Shown: positions 9,263 through 17,037 of the stretch, piece after piece
Layout: every line of letters starts with the position of its first letter
How positions within the stretch are numbered: the stretch's first letter is position 1
Source of the DNA: Streptacidiphilus jiangxiensis
GTDB lineage: Bacteria; Actinomycetota; Actinomycetes; Streptomycetales; Streptomycetaceae
Assembly: GCF_900109465.1 (NCBI RefSeq)
Contig: NZ_FOAZ01000003.1
Span: forward strand, 124,001-188,000
Length of the DNA stretch: 64,000 nt
Direction: 5' to 3'
The notes under the pieces: model-generated
Databases searched by the model: none
What the model was told of the DNA's origin: nothing
Seen by the model: only the letters and a program-made list of their open reading frames with translations
Translations under genes and position numbers: made by a program

Positions 9263-11539
9263 TCAGGAACGGTCTCGGAGCAGGCCGAGCATGAAACGGG
9301 CCAACCGCTGGGTTTCGTCCTCCGCATAATCCGGATGGCTGAGCAAATGGAGCAGGTCGCGACGCAGGGCCTTCCACTGACGCTCAGTCATGGCTTCCTG
9401 CATGGAGCCGCCGAGGGAGCGAACTGTATGGGACAGATCCGGCTCATCCCGCAGAGCCGATAGCGTTGTGCACAGGGCATCAAGTGCGGCGCGGCGCCTA
9501 TTACTCAGCAGCAAGCGCGCCCAAAGCCTGCCCAAGGGCCCTGCCACCGGCGAACTGTTACGCAGCAAACCCGCAGCAAGGGGGCTCGAACCGTCCAAGC
9601 TGGGCCCGCTCAGCATCAGCATTGCCGCGGTGGCAGCTCGTGATTGCTCTCTGGGCTCGCGGGCCGTTTCCATCCTGGTTCGCACATAGCGAAGGGTCAG
9701 TGAAGCACTTCGCTCGTCGTCTTCAGCGGCAGCGAGGAGCAGATACAGGGAACTCCGTGCGGCCCATGCGACCCGTTCACCGCGCGCGCTGAGGTACCAA
9801 AGCCAGTTCAGTGACTCGAACTGATAAGGCCGACCCAGGCCAACCAGAGCCATGGCGGCCGTGACTGCGCGCACTGGCCCCCTCTTGTCGGCCCACTGCA
9901 AGGCCAGGTTGAGCGCGTGGGACGCCAACTGTGGGTCAGCCGACATAAATTGGACCGTCAACGCTGCAGTGACGCGTTGGCTGACGTAGCCCGCCGACCA
10001 CACATCCAGATGGTTCTCCTCCACCTCGGCGAGTGCGTAGCGAGCTAAGAGGGCCAACCCGGCCGCTATCTCCGTCCGAAGCTGAAGGTCCCCGTTCTGG
10101 GAAAGATGCGTGAGCCACTGCCGCAACGGCTGCCACAGCTGCAGCCCGTAGAGCTCATTGAGCTGCTCCAGAACGAGTTCCCTGATGCGAGGCGATACGA
10201 AGAAGACACAACGCTCGACTCTGATCTGATCGTCACTTGTGGAGTAGTCACGTCGTGCTTCTATGAGCCCAGTTGTTGTCACGCTCCATCGACTCCGGCT
10301 CTGCTCGATCCTGAGTTCGGGCAGCGCGGGTACCGCGGCCTCCACGGTCGCGCCAACCATGGTGTGTTCCCAGTTTCGAACAGCAAGGGTCAAGCCGAAC
10401 AGGACCTTCTCGAACGTACGCTCCGGAAGGCCTTCGGCGAAGGCCAGTGCTGCGACGGTCAGCGTGTCCTCCGCAGAACGCGTCGGGTCTCGGAACCATG
10501 CATGGACGCGCGCCCGTTCCCCACTGCGCAGGGACTCAAGCGAATGCTCGAGGCCGCGCTCCGCAAGCGTACGTGCGACAGCAACCACATCGTCGGGTCG
10601 CCGCAGCGTAGAGACCAGTGCGCGCAACTCATCCAGGCGCTCTGGATCGTAGGTCGTATCCGGCGACTCCTTGAGACAGTGATTGAAGAGCTCGCTCGGA
10701 TCAGGTGCCGACCACCTTACGCAGAAACTCTTCAGCGACTGAAGTCGAATCGCCTGCTCCGAGGAGGTGACGACAAGGAACGATCCGCTCTTGCGCAGCT
10801 GACTGCTCAGCCGTCGCATTTCGAACTCCTGCACGCCGGCGGACTGCACGTCGCCGACGTAGTCCAGGATTACGTAGCCGTGCCCGGGCTTGACGGCGCT
10901 GGAATCCGCAAGCTCCGCGAGAGATGTGGCGGGCGAGAGGCTCCGAATCTGCGCATGTCCACCGAGCACCTCCCGCAGCAGCGCGAACGCCGCAGCTCGG
11001 CGTCCGGTGCCATCCTGGCCCACCAGAGACACAACGTTTCGGGAAGTCAGGCGTTCCTGGGCGCTCGAGAAGTGCGGCTGCGGCGGCATGTAGAACTCAA
11101 GTGCCTTGTCGACCTCAGCAAGGTCGACCAGGCCGGGTGTCAGCCCGAGTCGGCTTGCCGTTCCGACGCCAAATACCGAACCCCCGGCATCCACCCGATC
11201 ATGAAAGTGATTGTTCACTACCTGGTGAATGACTTTGCGAAACTCGCCGTACCCATGTTCGTCCTGGTCCTGATCCGAACCCGACTCTCCGACAGGTATG
11301 GGAGCGAGTGCTGGGGCATCCTCGCTGGCTTCGTGCCCCGCAGCTTCCGGCGATTCTTCCGGGACTGTCGCCCTGGGGGACTGCTCACCGGCGACAGCCC
11401 CGTCGGCATTCGCTGTGGCACTGCCTGTGACGACTCGCCGGGCATCTTCCGGGTCGGACAGACGAGGCCCCGACGACTCAGCCGGTCCTTCGTGCTCAGG
11501 CAAGGGGACTCCCGAATCCGAAAACGCTGCCCCGGACAT
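9263..11539 (-). CDS. STAND-like P-loop NTPase with helical-repeat C-terminus and shared VFGxG motif
   Basis: 758 residues. The first ~100 are disordered and acidic. Residues 107-126 carry VVNNHFH followed by GGSVFGVG, a motif shared with the C-terminus of the cyclase-like protein upstream. A nucleotide-binding core follows, with a degenerate Walker A (GQDGTGRR, 174-181, Arg where Lys is usual), a Walker B-like YVILD (222-226) and a sensor-like FLVVTSS (254-260). The remaining ~450 residues look all-helical, as in superhelical sensor regions of STAND proteins. The assigned ATG overlaps the cyclase gene by 44 bases; a later start is possible. I do not recognise a named family. Signal-sensing switch function is inferred from architecture. 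Confidence 0.6.
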   Translation of the reverse strand: MSGAAFSDSGVPLPEHEGPAESSGPRLSDPEDARRVVTGSATANADGAVAGEQSPRATVPEESPEAAGHEASEDAPALAPIPVGESGSDQDQDEHGYGEFRKVIHQVVNNHFHDRVDAGGSVFGVGTASRLGLTPGLVDLAEVDKALEFYMPPQPHFSSAQERLTSRNVVSLVGQDGTGRRAAAFALLREVLGGHAQIRSLSPATSLAELADSSAVKPGHGYVILDYVGDVQSAGVQEFEMRRLSSQLRKSGSFLVVTSSEQAIRLQSLKSFCVRWSAPDPSELFNHCLKESPDTTYDPERLDELRALVSTLRRPDDVVAVARTLAERGLEHSLESLRSGERARVHAWFRDPTRSAEDTLTVAALAFAEGLPERTFEKVLFGLTLAVRNWEHTMVGATVEAAVPALPELRIEQSRSRWSVTTTGLIEARRDYSTSDDQIRVERCVFFVSPRIRELVLEQLNELYGLQLWQPLRQWLTHLSQNGDLQLRTEIAAGLALLARYALAEVEENHLDVWSAGYVSQRVTAALTVQFMSADPQLASHALNLALQWADKRGPVRAVTAAMALVGLGRPYQFESLNWLWYLSARGERVAWAARSSLYLLLAAAEDDERSASLTLRYVRTRMETAREPREQSRAATAAMLMLSGPSLDGSSPLAAGLLRNSSPVAGPLGRLWARLLLSNRRRAALDALCTTLSALRDEPDLSHTVRSLGGSMQEAMTERQWKALRRDLLHLLSHPDYAEDETQRLARFMLGLLRDRS

Positions 11540-12218
11540 CGCCGTGAATGTGGTTCACCACGGTCGGACTCGCCGCGTGGGCCTCGGCCCGGCCCGACTC
11601 AGATCGAAGAGCAGCTGTATCTCGGCCTGACGCCGGCACCGTACGCGGCGTCCAGAGCCACGCTGGCGCGGTGAACTCCTTCTTCCGGACCGACACCCGA
11701 CGAAACATGGTCGGCTCGTACGTGGTGTGCCCGGCACCGACTGTGGCCTGAAAGAGATCGTCAGAGAGAAGCAGAGCGAGATCGATGTCGGGGAGCGTCC
11801 TGAGTGCCTCGTACAGCGGATCGGCTGCCAGCAGACGGCATACGGCAACAACGGCGCCACCGGCGAAGCCGTTGTCAGCCAACTCCACGGGCCCGTGGTG
11901 AAGAGCGACGCGAAGTCGCATGCGATGGATGTCCCGGCGTTCTTCGTTGTAGATCCGTAGTTCCGACACCATGTGCCGGACCAGATCATCGACGTAACGC
12001 GGCTCGTTCTCGTCCTGCGGGATGAGAGCCACCTCGCCATCACCCTGCTGCTGCACCTTCCAACGTGAGCGATCGAGACCAGCCCCGCTTGCCGCCCTGG
12101 TGAGAAGTCGACGCAGGTCGTGTTGGATCTCAGACTGCCGTCGATCGTTGTTCGGGCCGTATCCTTCAGCGTCTAGGGCGATGCACGTACATGGGCGGAA
12201 CCCGGACCAGTCGGTCAC
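11496..12218 (-). CDS. class III nucleotidyl cyclase-like protein with C-terminal signalling motif
   Basis: 240 residues. Strand 1 has ALDAEGYG with Asp16 and the central hairpin has QQGDGEVAL with Asp60. These are the positions of the two metal-binding aspartates of class III adenylate/guanylate/pyrimidine cyclases. RLRVALHHGPVE (101-112) matches the strand before the dimer interface. GGAVVAVCRLLAADP keeps the Arg of the VNxAxRL element but not the Asn, so activity is uncertain. The last 21 residues end in HGDVRGSVFGFG. GTG 12218 was chosen for AGGAG seven bases upstream; ATG 12231-12233 is the alternative. It lies 79 bases behind the Crp-like gene and overlaps the NTPase gene. Confidence 0.7.
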   Translation of the reverse strand: MTDWSGFRPCTCIALDAEGYGPNNDRRQSEIQHDLRRLLTRAASGAGLDRSRWKVQQQGDGEVALIPQDENEPRYVDDLVRHMVSELRIYNEERRDIHRMRLRVALHHGPVELADNGFAGGAVVAVCRLLAADPLYEALRTLPDIDLALLLSDDLFQATVGAGHTTYEPTMFRRVSVRKKEFTAPAWLWTPRTVPASGRDTAALRSESGRAEAHAASPTVVNHIHGDVRGSVFGFGSPLA

Positions 12219-12297
12219 AGCCTCTCCTGTCATCAAACGGTGGCCACGGCGGGTGGGACGGCCAGGCTAGGCTTGGCACGCGGCTGTCGACCCCGTA

Positions 12298-12999
12298 TCA
12301 GTAGGGGTTTTGGGGGTCTACATGGGCGAACTGCATAAGGCGTGGCACGTCGTTCACCGTCACACTGCGGTAGTTCCGCTCCACTAAGCCGATCCGGGTC
12401 AATCCGGCCAGGGCCTTCTCGGCCGTCGCGAGCTTCAGGCCCGCCAGCGACGCCAGCTCCGACTGGGTCAGTGTCAAAGCAAGCACGCTCCGAGGGCGGC
12501 CTGGTTCCGTCAACCCGTACGAGTGCGAGAGTTCGACCAGCACACGAGCAAGTCGTGTCTCCGCGTCGTACGCCTGAAACTCGACGCGTCGCTGGTTCGC
12601 CCAACGCAGTCGAGCGCTCAGCATTCGGATGACGCCTCGCAGGGCATCCGGACGCGCGGCAAGAAATTGCTCCAACGCCTCCCGCTGGACAACCCTCGCC
12701 CGGACCTCGCCACAAGCGATCACAGAACCCGAGCGTGGCCGACTCTCGAAGGCGGCCATCTCACCGACAAGATCACCGCCAACGCGGACGGCCGCCAGCA
12801 TCTCGTACCCGGTCTCAGCATTCAGCAGCACCTTTACAAAGCCGCTGACCAGCAAGATGACGTGCGAGCCTTCCTCTCCCTGTCGCAAGATCCAGCGGTG
12901 GGCCGGATAGATCACCGGCGTACCGATCTCCAGAACGGCCTCCGCGGTGTCCGGCCTCAGCTGCCCCAGAAAGGTTGAAGGCGGCCACACGTTGCCCAT
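12298..12999 (-). CDS. Crp/Fnr family cyclic-nucleotide-binding transcription regulator
   Basis: 233 residues. The N-terminal beta-roll runs to about 125. Its phosphate-binding cassette GEMAAFESRPRSGS retains the Gly-Glu and Arg-Ser that contact cyclic nucleotide phosphate and ribose. A dimer helix follows, then a winged helix-turn-helix (about 170-215, LTQSELASLAGLKLATAEKAL). ATG 12999 was chosen for GGGAGG upstream. No Fe-S cysteines are seen, so it is closer to Crp than Fnr. As first gene of the operon it is a likely autoregulator. Its probable ligand is the product of the cyclase-like protein encoded next; that link is inferred. Confidence 0.85.
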   Translation of the reverse strand: MGNVWPPSTFLGQLRPDTAEAVLEIGTPVIYPAHRWILRQGEEGSHVILLVSGFVKVLLNAETGYEMLAAVRVGGDLVGEMAAFESRPRSGSVIACGEVRARVVQREALEQFLAARPDALRGVIRMLSARLRWANQRRVEFQAYDAETRLARVLVELSHSYGLTEPGRPRSVLALTLTQSELASLAGLKLATAEKALAGLTRIGLVERNYRSVTVNDVPRLMQFAHVDPQNPY

Positions 13000-13546
13000 G
13001 GAACCTCCCACGCGTCCGGGCGACGGCACCCTGATCGACTCTTTGTCCATCGGCCTCCCCCGGAGCGCTGAGAGCGGGAAGGCCCATCATGCCTCCGCTC
13101 CGTCTCCCTGAAACCTCACTTTCGCACTTTGGCTTGATATGATTGCCTATCAATTAGCCTTGATTGCTGAATGTTTGACACTTCGCCAGCCCAGAGGGCT
13201 CTTGGGGTGGGTCCCTATCGCAAGGCGGTCACCACTTCCGGCCATGCCCGCTCCCACTGACGTGCAGCGCCATCGGCCGGCCCTGCGCGGCTTCGATGTC
13301 TGCCGGGATCGTCGTCGGGTCTTCGACTTATGAAGACAAGCGTGCCTATCGTTCTGCGGCGAGTCACCACAGGGCCGCATCATTGATCGCAGACAGAGGT
13401 CCACTCACCCCGGAGGGACCTCAGCCCTCCGTCGCGAAGACGCGTCTGCCCTGCCTCCGTGCGTCCCACCTTGCAAGACCAGGAGTCTCGGCGCCGTGCG
13501 ACTCGTTAACGTTACGTCCGTGGCAAACGCAGCTTTGGAGGTCGCC
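13000..13546. other. intergenic region between the island and pheA
   Basis: Divergent promoter region of about 550 bases without a convincing gene. It contains the operator-like repeats at 13134-13164. It also holds a GTCTTC/GAAGAC inverted repeat (13319-13337) and a 7-bp hairpin CGGAGGG/CCCTCCG (13411-13431) that would lie in a pheA leader. No integrase, tRNA or flanking direct repeat marking an attachment site is visible. Confidence 0.5.
13134..13164. promoter_or_regulatory. overlapping inverted repeats upstream of the six-gene operon
   Basis: TTGATA (13134-13139), eight bases, then TATCAA (13148-13153) form a perfect inverted repeat. The second half also pairs with TTGAT at 13160-13164 as ATCAA-N6-TTGAT, the 5-N6-5 geometry of Crp-type sites. 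The stretch is strikingly AT-rich and lies 135 bases ahead of the regulator's start. It is the natural candidate for the operon's operator. No convincing -35/-10 pair could be fixed. Confidence 0.5.
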
Positions 13547-14479
13547 GTGTCCGCGAACCGATTCACCTACCTCGGTCCGGAGGGCACCTTCACCGAGGCC
13601 GCGCTGCGCACGCTCCCTGAGGCGGCCACGCGGGAGCTCGTGCCCGCCGTGTCCGTGCCCGCCGCGCTGGACGCGGTGCGCAACGGGGAGGCAGCCGCCG
13701 CGCTCGTACCGATCGAGAACTCCGTCGAGGGCGGGATCCGGCAGACCATGGACGAGCTCGCCCAGGGCGAGCCGCTGATGATCTACCGCGAGGTCCTGCT
13801 GCCGATCGCCTTCGCGCTGCTCGTGCGGCCCGGCACCAAGCTGGAGGACGTGAAGACCGTCACCGGCCACCCCGCGGCGCAGCCTCAGGTGCGGCACTGG
13901 ATGGCGGAGAACCTGCCGGACGCGCAGTGGGAGTCGGCCGCGTCCAACGCCGACGGTGCGCGGTTGGTGCAGGAGGGCCGGTACGACGGGGCCTTCGCGG
14001 GCGCCTTCGCCGCGCCGCTGTACCACCTGGAGCCGCTGGCGTCGGAGATCCACGACGCCGCGAACGCGACGACGCGCTTCGTGCTCGTCGGGCGGCCGGG
14101 GCGGCCGCCGGCTCCGACGGGGGCCGACAAGACCTCGGCGGTGTTCTGGCTGGCGGACGACCACCCGGGCGCGCTGCTGGAGCTGCTGCAGGAGTTCGCC
14201 GTGCGCGGGGTGAACCTGATGCGGATCGAGTCCCGCCCGACCGGCGAGGGGCTCGGCAAGTACTGCTTCGCCGCGGACGCGGAGGGCCACATCACGGACC
14301 ACCGGGTGGGCGAGGCGCTGATGGGCCTGCACCGGATCTGTCCCCAGGTGCGGCTGCTGGGCTCGTACCCGCGGGCGGACGCGGTGCCGGCGACGGTGCG
14401 TCCGGGCACGTCGGACACGGAGTTCGCCCGCGCCTCGGACTGGCTGTCCCGAGCTCTGGACGGTCGCGGGGAGCTGTAG
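13547..14479 (+). CDS. pheA: prephenate dehydratase
   Basis: 310 residues. Converts prephenate to phenylpyruvate in phenylalanine synthesis. The catalytic domain starts with YLGPEGTFTEAAL and contains VPIENSVEGGIRQTMDEL. The invariant TRF motif appears as NATTRFVLVG at about 180. A C-terminal ACT domain (about 210-285) with the regulatory motif ESRPTGEGLGKYCF binds phenylalanine for feedback control. GTG 13547 was chosen because GGAGG stands six bases upstream; an upstream GTG at 13496 lacks such a site and would add unmatched residues. It is a stand-alone enzyme without chorismate mutase, as usual in actinomycetes. Confidence 0.95.
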   Translation: MSANRFTYLGPEGTFTEAALRTLPEAATRELVPAVSVPAALDAVRNGEAAAALVPIENSVEGGIRQTMDELAQGEPLMIYREVLLPIAFALLVRPGTKLEDVKTVTGHPAAQPQVRHWMAENLPDAQWESAASNADGARLVQEGRYDGAFAGAFAAPLYHLEPLASEIHDAANATTRFVLVGRPGRPPAPTGADKTSAVFWLADDHPGALLELLQEFAVRGVNLMRIESRPTGEGLGKYCFAADAEGHITDHRVGEALMGLHRICPQVRLLGSYPRADAVPATVRPGTSDTEFARASDWLSRALDGRGEL

Positions 14480-14574
14480 TCCACAGCCGGCCGCGAGTTA
14501 TCCACAGGGGACTCGGTTATCCACAGCCTGGGGACACCGCGGGAGATCCGGCGAAACTCGCCTTGCCCAACAAA

Positions 14575-14593
14575 ACTTGCAGATCAGGCAAGT
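14575..14593 (+). terminator. small hairpin after pheA
   Basis: ACTTGC (14575-14580) and GCAAGT (14588-14593) form a 6-bp stem with a seven-base loop about 95 bases after pheA. It is weak and without a T tract; it may contribute to pheA termination. Confidence 0.3.
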
Positions 14594-14647
14594 CGGACAT
14601 AGGGGGATTCCGATGGCCAGTTTCCCCAAAGTCCCCTTCGCAGACCC

Positions 14648-14703
14648 AAAAAATCACGCCTCCGGCCGCAAACACGAGGTTTAGCGAGCTCAGAGGCGTG
14701 ATT
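14648..14703 (-). terminator. long stem-loop with T tract ending the deacetylase transcript
   Basis: On the minus strand, AATCACGCCTC (14703-14693) pairs with GAGGCGTGATT (14662-14652) around a 30-base loop. The second arm runs into a T tract (A6 on the plus strand at 14648-14653). It lies about 97 bases downstream of the minus-strand deacetylase stop and fits an intrinsic terminator, unusual in this GC-rich setting. Confidence 0.6.
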
Positions 14704-14799
14704 ACTCACAATCCACAGGCCATCGAGGCGGCCTGTGGATAAAGTCGGGATATCCACAGTCGCCGTCGGGCTTCGGGTCTTCTCAGGCGTCGGGTCTTC

Positions 14800-15591
14800 T
14801 CAGGCGTCCGGGAAGTTGATGGAGTAGCCCTGCTGGACCAGCCACGGCAGCAGCTGGGCCAGAGCGGCCACGGTCTGGCTCCGGTCCCCGCCGCCGTCGT
14901 GCATGAGAATGATCGAGCCCGGCTTCACTTCCTTCTTGACCGTGGCGACGATCGCGGCGACCCCGGGCCGCTTCCAGTCGTTGGTGTCCACGCTCCAGGC
15001 GAGCGGACGCAATCCGTTCTCCGCGGATATCTGCCGGATCTCCGGAGAGAAATCACCGCCGGGCGCACGGAACCAGCTGACCTGGGTCCCCTCGCCGCCG
15101 GCCTGCTCGATCATCTGCTTCGCGCCGACGATCTCATTCGTCTCATAGGCGAGACCGCGCTTGGACATCGCCTCGTTGTGGTGCACCGAGTGGTCGCACA
15201 GCCGGTCGCCGGCCGCCAGGACCTGCTTGACCGCGCCCGGGTTCGCGGTCGCGTTCGGGCCTATCTCACAGAACGTCGCATGCGCGTTGTACTTCGCCAG
15301 CTCGGCGAGGATCCGCGGCGTCCACGTCCCGCTCGGCCCGTCGTCGAAGGTCAGCGCGACCGTCTTCTCGCCGTTCGGGTGGGCGATGTAGTACTCCAGC
15401 TGCTTGCTGACCGTCTCGGTCCCGTTCGGGACGGTGTCGCCGGAGGTGCGCTTCGGGGCCGGGGAGGCGCTGGTGGCACCGCCCTTGGCCCCGCCGTCCG
15501 CCCCCTGCGCCCCGGTGCCCCCGCCGCACGCGGAGAGCGCCAGCACCGCCGCCAGCATCGCTCCCGCTGCCGCCACCGTGCGCGTCCTCAT
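14800..15591 (-). CDS. polysaccharide deacetylase, lipoprotein (CE4/NodB)
   Basis: 263 residues. The signal ends in lipobox LALSAC (Cys22), then a Gly/Ala/Ser linker. The NodB domain (about 75-260) has motif 1 TFDDGPSGTWTP with the catalytic base and metal Asp. Motif 2 appears as DHSVHHNEA with metal His residues, then RAPGGDFS and a late LMHDGGG. CE4 enzymes remove acetyl groups from peptidoglycan or other N-acetylated glycans on the cell surface. ATG 15591 was preferred over GTG 15603 because GAGAGGTGG then lies at normal spacing. The catalytic module closely resembles that of the fusion enzyme at 32928-35351. Confidence 0.88.
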   Translation of the reverse strand: MRTRTVAAAGAMLAAVLALSACGGGTGAQGADGGAKGGATSASPAPKRTSGDTVPNGTETVSKQLEYYIAHPNGEKTVALTFDDGPSGTWTPRILAELAKYNAHATFCEIGPNATANPGAVKQVLAAGDRLCDHSVHHNEAMSKRGLAYETNEIVGAKQMIEQAGGEGTQVSWFRAPGGDFSPEIRQISAENGLRPLAWSVDTNDWKRPGVAAIVATVKKEVKPGSIILMHDGGGDRSQTVAALAQLLPWLVQQGYSINFPDA

Positions 15592-15759
15592 GTCCTGTCC
15601 CACCTCTCGTTCGCTGTCCGCCCGCCAACTGTCGCAGCAGGAATGGCGTGTTCAGAGCGATCTCACAGGTTCGGGGTGGCCCCGGGACGAAGATGTGACA
15701 AACCAGACCCTGCGACTGTGAGTCCGCTCACCCCACCCCGGGCCCGGTAGGCTCGTACC

Positions 15760-17037
15760 GTGATTGACCTTCGCCTGCTTCGTATGGACCCGGACCGTGT
15801 GCGTGCCTCCCAGCGCGCCCGAGGTGAGGACGTCGAGCTCGTCGACGCCCTGCTCGCCGCCGACGAGCGGCAGCGATCGTCCAGTTCCCGCTTCGACGAA
15901 CTGCGCAACGAGCAGAAGCAGCTGGGCAAGCAGGTGGCCCAGGCCAAGGGCGACGAGAAGGCCGCGCTGCTGGAGCGCACCAAGCAGCTGGCCGCCGACG
16001 TCAAGACGGCCAACGCCGAGCAGTCCGAGGCCGAGGCCGAGGTGCAGCGTCTGCTGGGCGGGCTGGCCAACCTGCTCGACCCGGCCGCTCCGATCGGCGG
16101 CGAGGAGGACTTCGTCACCATCGAGGAGGTCGGCACCCCGCGCGACTTCGCCGCGGAGGGCTTCGAGCCCCGCGACCACGTCGAGTTGGGCAAGATCCTC
16201 GGCGCGATCGACACCGAGCGGGCCGCCAAGGTCTCCGGCTCGCGCTTCTACTACCTGACCGGCGTCGGCGCGCTGCTGGAGCTCGCCCTGGTCAACATGG
16301 CGATCGCGCAGGCCACCGAGGCCGGCTTCATCCCGATGATCACGCCCGCGCTGGTCAAGCCGCGCGCCATGGAGGGCACCGGCTTCCTCGGCCAGGCCGC
16401 GGAGAACGTCTTCCACCTCCCGGAGGACGACTTCTACCTGGTCGGCACGTCCGAGGTGCCGCTGGCCGCCTACCACATGGACGAGATCCTCGACGGGGAC
16501 CAGCTGCCGCTGCGCTACGCCGGCTTCTCGCCGTGCTTCCGCCGCGAGGCCGGCACCTACGGCAAGGACACCCGCGGCATCATCCGCGTCCACCAGTTCG
16601 ACAAGGTGGAGATGTTCTCCTACGTCGCACCGGAGGACGCCGAGGCCGAGCACAAGCGCCTGCTCCAGTGGGAGCGGGACTTCCTCGACAAGCTCGGGCT
16701 CGCCTACCGCGTCATCGACGTGGCCTCCGGCGACCTCGGTGCCTCCGCGATGCGCAAGTTCGACATCGAGGCGTGGATCCCCACCCAGGGCAAGTACCGC
16801 GAGCTCACCTCGACCTCCAACTGCGGTGAGTTCCAGGCCCGTCGCCTGGGCATCCGGATGCGCGGCGAGGAGGGCAACCGCCCGCTGGCCACGCTCAACG
16901 GCACGCTGTGCGCGGTGCCGCGCACCATCGTGGCGATCCTGGAGACGCACCAGCTGGCCGACGGCTCCGTCGTCGTCCCGGAGGCGCTGCGCCCCTACCT
17001 CGGCGGGCGCGAGGTGCTGACCCCGGTCGGCAAGTAA
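15760..17037 (+). CDS. serS: seryl-tRNA synthetase
   Basis: 425 residues. Charges tRNA-Ser in the cytoplasm. The N-terminal ~110 residues form the antiparallel coiled-coil arm (QQ/K/E-rich helices) that grips the long variable arm of the tRNA. The class II core carries motif 2 ([18 protein letters not shown], about 254-271) and motif 3 ([13 protein letters not shown], about 357-369), plus the serine-binding [10 protein letters not shown]. The GTG start agrees with the usual MIDLRLLR N-terminus. Length is normal, and the HAD gene follows after 32 bases. Confidence 0.97.

What the first reader, a model, noticed from the sequence alone, without database searches (positions are those of the whole stretch)
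14477..14759. DnaA-box cluster away from oriC, built into palindromes
Three perfect and three near boxes in 282 bases, the right-hand ones within two nested long palindromes. No dnaA/dnaN nearby. In S. coelicolor a high-affinity cluster, D78, limits replication initiation, and this gene neighbourhood lies at about the right distance from oriC. The palindromic arrangement of opposing boxes could place DnaA dimers face to face.
Basis: partly seen in the sequence, partly recalled or inferred. Interest (0 to 1): 0.7.

Follow-up and report, generated by a model that had tools for sequence, protein, structure and literature searches.

The report
D78-type DnaA-box cluster near replication origin
This is a family-wide conserved cluster of binding sites for the replication initiator DnaA, 118 kb from the replication origin; it is very probably the Streptacidiphilus version of the known Streptomyces 'D78' brake on DNA replication.

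Summary
In detail: three perfect and three near DnaA boxes lie in 282 bp between pheA and a polysaccharide-deacetylase gene of a Streptacidiphilus genome (chance about 5e-6 per genome). dnaA lies 117.6 kb away. The cluster follows pheA in all 52 Streptomycetaceae loci tested and all 14 genomes of the genus; 22 pheA loci of other actinomycetes have no perfect box. In 26 genomes it sits 78-171 kb from dnaA. In a genome of the S. coelicolor group, found through a published SCO3961 sequence, the pheA-serS gap holds four perfect boxes, one of only two non-oriC clusters there. I conclude it is the D78 orthologue, though the D78 paper itself could not be read. Most likely it titrates DnaA. New detail: 51 of 52 loci hold a convergent strong/weak box pair spaced exactly 25 bp; in Streptomyces such a pair stands at both ends in mirror image, in the window only the right arm keeps it. 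A published EMSA-confirmed ScbR2 site (butyrolactone-receptor homologue) lies midway between the arms in S. coelicolor, not in the window's genus. The long hairpin at 14649-14706 looks like a terminator, not a DnaA site.

The parts
14477..14485 (+). near DnaA box TAGTCCACA (1 mismatch), overlaps the pheA stop codon
   Evidence: present also in L013, not in L010/L011/L014
14498..14506 (+). perfect DnaA box TTATCCACA
   Evidence: conserved in the close relatives L010-L014
14517..14525 (+). perfect DnaA box TTATCCACA, 19 bp after the previous one (tandem left arm)
14529..14537 (-). weak opposing box GTGTCCCCA (2 mismatches), counterpart of TTGTCCCCA in the Streptomyces left arm
14649..14706 (-). 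long hairpin followed by a T-run on the - strand: probable intrinsic terminator of the deacetylase gene; no DnaA box in it
   Evidence: (RNA fold of 14630-14770, z -5.2, 0 of 200 shuffles); the tool's short-loop terminator scan did not list it; largely conserved in close Streptacidiphilus only
14709..14717 (+). weak box CAATCCACA (2 mismatches), partner in the right-arm convergent pair
   Evidence: invariant in 7 Streptacidiphilus
14734..14742 (-). perfect DnaA box TTATCCACA on the - strand, 25 bp start-to-start from 14709
   Evidence: 25-bp spacing in 51 of 52 loci
14750..14758 (+). near box ATATCCACA (1 mismatch), 16 bp after 14734
   Evidence: also in the other 13 genomes of the genus
14711..14740 (.). 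inverted repeat ATCCACAGGCC-8-GGCCTGTGGAT holding the opposing boxes
14731..14761 (.). second inverted repeat GCCTGTGGATA-9-TATCCACAGTC, overlapping the first
13496..14479 (+). pheA, prephenate dehydratase (PDT + ACT); start probably at 13547
14800..15603 (-). polysaccharide deacetylase lipoprotein gene, between the cluster and serS in the close Streptacidiphilus relatives
15760..17037 (+). serS, seryl-tRNA synthetase

Best explanation
The stretch 14477-14759 is the Streptacidiphilus orthologue of the Streptomyces D78 DnaA-box cluster: a high-affinity sink for DnaA near oriC. Strong boxes, each with an opposing weak box or a close tandem neighbour, load DnaA cooperatively. Because the site is duplicated soon after a round of replication starts, it takes up free DnaA and so delays the next initiation. 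Shown here: the boxes, their non-random clustering, conservation across the family, the restricted distance from dnaA, and the exact 25-bp convergent spacing. Inferred: DnaA binding, cooperativity and the titration effect, all carried over from published work on S. coelicolor. Whether DnaA is only held or also converted between its ATP and ADP forms is open.
For: Three perfect boxes in 245 bp, chance about 5e-6 per genome. All 52 Streptomycetaceae pheA loci have 2-6 perfect boxes within 620 nt of the pheA stop, against 0 in the last 620 nt of pheA itself; 14 of 14 genomes of the genus; no perfect box in 22 pheA loci of other actinomycete families. Distance to dnaA 78-171 kb in 26 genomes. Convergent pair at exactly 25 bp in 51 of 52 loci; both arms in 39 of 52. 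A genome with the exact published S. coelicolor SCO3961 sequence has four perfect boxes between pheA and serS, and only one other non-oriC cluster of three or more. S. coelicolor numbering: pheA = SCO3962 (PMC6585502), serS = SCO3961 (PMC4595836), dnaA = SCO3879 (PMC6344877). Reviews state that an S. coelicolor cluster close to oriC represses untimely initiation (PMC5742627; PMC4585315).
Against: The D78 paper (10.1128/JB.00528-06) is not held; that D78 equals the pheA-serS gap rests on synteny, elimination and my memory of cosmid names. No binding or replication data exist for this genus. The high-affinity Streptomyces box is quoted as TTGTCCACA (PMC4285127), while the perfect boxes here are TTATCCACA. 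Distance to oriC may be conserved only because gene order near the origin is conserved.
Confidence: 0.75

Rival explanations
1. The site is not a passive sink but a converter of DnaA: convergent, head-to-head DnaA pairs promote nucleotide exchange or hydrolysis, in the manner of DARS (opposed boxes) or datA.
For: Opposed boxes at a fixed spacing are the hallmark of the DARS core, with head-to-head contacts (PMC5742627). Here the convergent 25-bp pair is nearly invariant, and a second, Streptomyces-only perfect pair with the same spacing lies about 10 kb away.
Against: The S. coelicolor cluster is reported to repress initiation, the opposite of a DARS. No counterpart of the required IHF/Fis sites was identified. 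My scan did not recover the E. coli DARS core boxes well enough to compare spacings.
Confidence: 0.15
2. The boxes regulate transcription of a neighbour (serS, pheA or the deacetylase gene) through DnaA as a transcription factor.
For: In most relatives the cluster lies upstream of serS. DnaA acts as a transcription factor elsewhere (general knowledge).
Against: In the window and its close relatives a gene on the opposite strand lies between the cluster and serS, yet the cluster is kept; there it is downstream of both convergent genes. No sigma-70-like promoter was found.
Confidence: 0.08
3. The palindromes are transcription terminators and the box-like sequence is incidental.
For: The hairpin 14649-14706 with its T-run is a good terminator for the deacetylase gene.
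Against: That hairpin holds no DnaA box. Box sequences and their spacing are conserved in genomes that lack the deacetylase gene and the hairpin at this place.
Confidence: 0.02

Closest known systems
D78 DnaA-box cluster of Streptomyces coelicolor (Smulczyk-Krawczyszyn et al. 2006)
   Same: Cluster of DnaA boxes in a noncoding gap near oriC; by synteny the same pheA-serS gap; 118 kb from dnaA here, 78-96 kb in most Streptomyces measured.
   Different: Left arm is a tandem of two perfect boxes instead of a strong/weak convergent pair; a deacetylase gene lies before serS; the ScbR2 site of S. coelicolor is absent.
datA of E. coli
   Same: A noncoding DnaA-box cluster outside oriC that lowers active DnaA; reviewers call the S. 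coelicolor cluster analogous.
   Different: Essential datA boxes all point the same way and need IHF; here the conserved feature is opposed boxes, with no IHF site known.
DARS1/DARS2 of E. coli
   Same: Opposed boxes at a fixed spacing.
   Different: DARS raise ATP-DnaA, whereas the S. coelicolor cluster represses initiation; a three-box core was not recognised here.
Other Streptomycetaceae clusters: upstream of dnaB and beside crgA (presumably H24 and H69)
   Same: Convergent perfect boxes near oriC, same family range for the crgA one.
   Different: Spacing 31-35 bp rather than 25; the crgA element has its own conserved core TTATCCACAGATCTTCCGACCTTTTCCCCACTGTGGATAA.

Membership tests
D78 cluster | Several DnaA boxes clustered in a noncoding gap away from oriC | tested here: met
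D78 cluster | Same chromosomal place as in S. coelicolor (pheA SCO3962 / serS SCO3961) | tested here: inconclusive
   The orthologous gap in a genome carrying the exact published SCO3961 sequence holds the cluster; published D78 coordinates could not be read
D78 cluster | Close to oriC | tested here: met
   117.6 kb from dnaA; 78-171 kb in 26 genomes
D78 cluster | Binds DnaA more strongly than oriC does | not testable with these tools
   needs purified protein
D78 cluster | Deletion raises initiation frequency | not testable with these tools
   needs a mutant
datA | Essential boxes in one direction plus an IHF site | tested here: not met
   conserved pairs are opposed; definition
DARS | Core of three boxes, box I opposed to II and III, fixed spacing | tested here: inconclusive
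   opposed pair with fixed spacing found; E. coli core spacing not recovered
oriC | Lies beside dnaA, between dnaA and dnaN | tested here: not met
   dnaA is 117.6 kb away, and a dense array of boxes directly follows it at C57:257 kb

The most novel reading that the evidence does not exclude
In Streptomyces the D78 element is a signal-gated switch: the butyrolactone-receptor homologue ScbR2 sits between its two mirror-image DnaA arms and controls how much DnaA they hold, coupling antibiotic and developmental signalling to chromosome replication. The 25-bp convergent DnaA pair would be its basic unit. In Streptacidiphilus the DnaA part is kept without the ScbR2 site.
Probability: 0.15. Interest if true: 0.75.

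Novelty: new member of a known kind. Interest (0 to 1): 0.5.

Why it matters
It shows that a regulatory DnaA sink described in one model species is present in every Streptomycetaceae pheA locus examined, with an exact internal geometry that can be tested by mutation. It also links a published but unexplained ScbR2 binding event at serS, where expression did not change, to a replication control site.

Tried and rejected
Rfam: no match at gathering score, the weak ones are clear chance. AdpA consensus TGGCSNGWWY at 14614: 7 in the window against 7.3 expected, and not conserved in relatives. D78 paper and cosmid names in the literature: not found. E. coli DARS/datA spacing comparison: not decisive. 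Side of dnaA as a conserved feature: rejected, as Kitasatospora-group and some Streptacidiphilus genomes have the locus on the other side. ScbR2 site in the window: match only at the level of shuffled queries.

Full report
Observation. The window lies in a Streptacidiphilus genome (nearest named relatives S. neutrinimicus, S. melanogenes, S. anmyonensis, S. pinicola), contig C57:124001-188000. Between pheA (13496-14479, +) and a polysaccharide-deacetylase gene (14800-15603, -), with serS at 15760, there are three perfect boxes TTATCCACA (14498+, 14517+, 14734-), two with one mismatch (14477+, 14750+) and one with two (14709+). The genome has 51 perfect TTRTCCACA against 9 for the reversed control. 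Three within 283 bp is expected about 5e-6 times per genome.

Place in the genome. dnaA is at C57:256052, so the cluster is 117.6 kb away. In this genome three places outside oriC have at least three perfect boxes close together: this one, one upstream of dnaB (C57:219960-220047) and one between a rhomboid gene and a gene I read as crgA (C57:270749-270928). From memory, the S. coelicolor study described three clusters, named after cosmids H69, H24 and D78; the match in number and position is suggestive.

Conservation. In 51 related loci and the window, 2-6 perfect boxes lie within 620 nt after the pheA stop, against none in the last 620 nt of pheA. All 14 genomes of the genus have at least two. 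In 22 pheA loci of other actinomycete families there is no perfect box in up to 1.5 kb either side. The feature therefore belongs to Streptomycetaceae. In 26 genomes its distance from dnaA is 78-171 kb: 5' of dnaA in the Streptomyces measured, 3' in the Kitasatospora-group genomes and some Streptacidiphilus. Only the distance, not the side, is kept; symmetric inversions about the origin would do this.

Architecture. In Streptomyces the consensus is GTTATCCACAGG-N13-CTGGGGACAAGTCGACA on the left and, on the other strand, GTTATCCACAGG-N13-CTGTGGA on the right: two copies of one strong/weak convergent pair, facing each other across about 235 bp. A convergent pair with exactly 25 bp start-to-start is in 51 of 52 loci; no other convergent spacing exceeds 25 loci and no divergent spacing exceeds 7. 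Both arms are recognisable in 39 of 52. In the window the right arm keeps it (14709/14734), while the left arm is a tandem pair 19 bp apart. The two palindromes at the right are these opposed boxes; they overlap rather than nest.

The hairpin. 14649-14706 folds into a long stem whose - strand ends in a T-run (z -5.2 for the surrounding 141 nt). It lies about 100 nt beyond the stop of the deacetylase gene and is best read as its terminator.

Comparison with S. coelicolor. The D78 paper is not held. Reviews say that S. coelicolor has a DnaA-box cluster near oriC that represses untimely initiation. A ChIP/EMSA study (PMC4595836) lists SCO3961 (serS) as an ScbR2 target with the possible site AGGCCACCCTTCGTCCACCTGTTTCTTG and no change of serS expression (0.947). 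That string occurs exactly in one of 395 searched genomes, G335. There the pheA-serS gap holds boxes at 1387+, 1400+, 1425-, 1660-, 1690- of L128, with the ScbR2 site at 1501-1528, midway between the arms. That genome has only one other non-oriC cluster of three or more perfect boxes. pheA is SCO3962 and dnaA SCO3879. This makes the pheA-serS gap the natural candidate for D78. The ScbR2 paper mentions neither DnaA nor replication. The ScbR2 site is recognisable in roughly a third of the Streptomyces loci and not in Streptacidiphilus.

Mechanism. Most likely titration: a high-affinity sink replicated early in each round. Titration near the origin has recent direct support in E. coli (PMC12371093). 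A converting role (DARS- or datA-like) is less likely but not excluded; the strict opposed spacing is a point in its favour. Membership: D78 by synteny and structure; not datA by box direction; DARS undecided; not oriC.

Verdict. The finding is a new member of a known kind, with two details worth a test: the exact 25-bp convergent pair, and the ScbR2 site inside the Streptomyces element.

Noticed in passing
G335:C1:4171049-4171076 (L128:1501-1528): The published ScbR2 site of SCO3961 lies midway between the two DnaA arms of the pheA-serS cluster in a genome of the S. coelicolor group; the source paper does not connect it with replication.
   Followed up: partly
G021:C1:4415483-4415516 (L121:1484-1517) and about 30 other Streptomyces genomes: A perfect convergent DnaA-box pair with the same 25-bp spacing (TTGTCCACAG-N14-CTGTGGATAA), about 8-13 kb origin-proximal of the cluster in most genomes checked, just upstream of an RNA 2'-phosphotransferase (KptA) gene in G021; only in genus g9 (33 of 200 family genomes), absent in the window's genus.
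   Followed up: partly
L005:16877-16929 (C57:270876-270928): DnaA element beside a CrgA-like gene, TTATCCACAGATAGTCGGGGTTTTTCCCCACTGTGGATAA; conserved in most genera of the family, usually with 31-bp spacing.
   Followed up: partly
L004:6995-9937 (-): dnaB of this genome carries an intein with a LAGLIDADG domain, inserted at the Walker A site; a DnaA-box cluster lies just upstream.
   Followed up: partly
window 14649-14706: Long hairpin with a T-run on the - strand, shared by close Streptacidiphilus relatives, probably a terminator of the deacetylase gene.
   Followed up: partly
G071, G098, G142, G113, G011, G001, G012: The pheA locus lies on the other side of dnaA at a similar distance, as after inversion about the origin.
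   Followed up: no
window 9263-11539 (-) and 11496-12236 (-): Two ORFs beside a Crp-like ORF (12298-13050) without any Pfam match.
   Followed up: no
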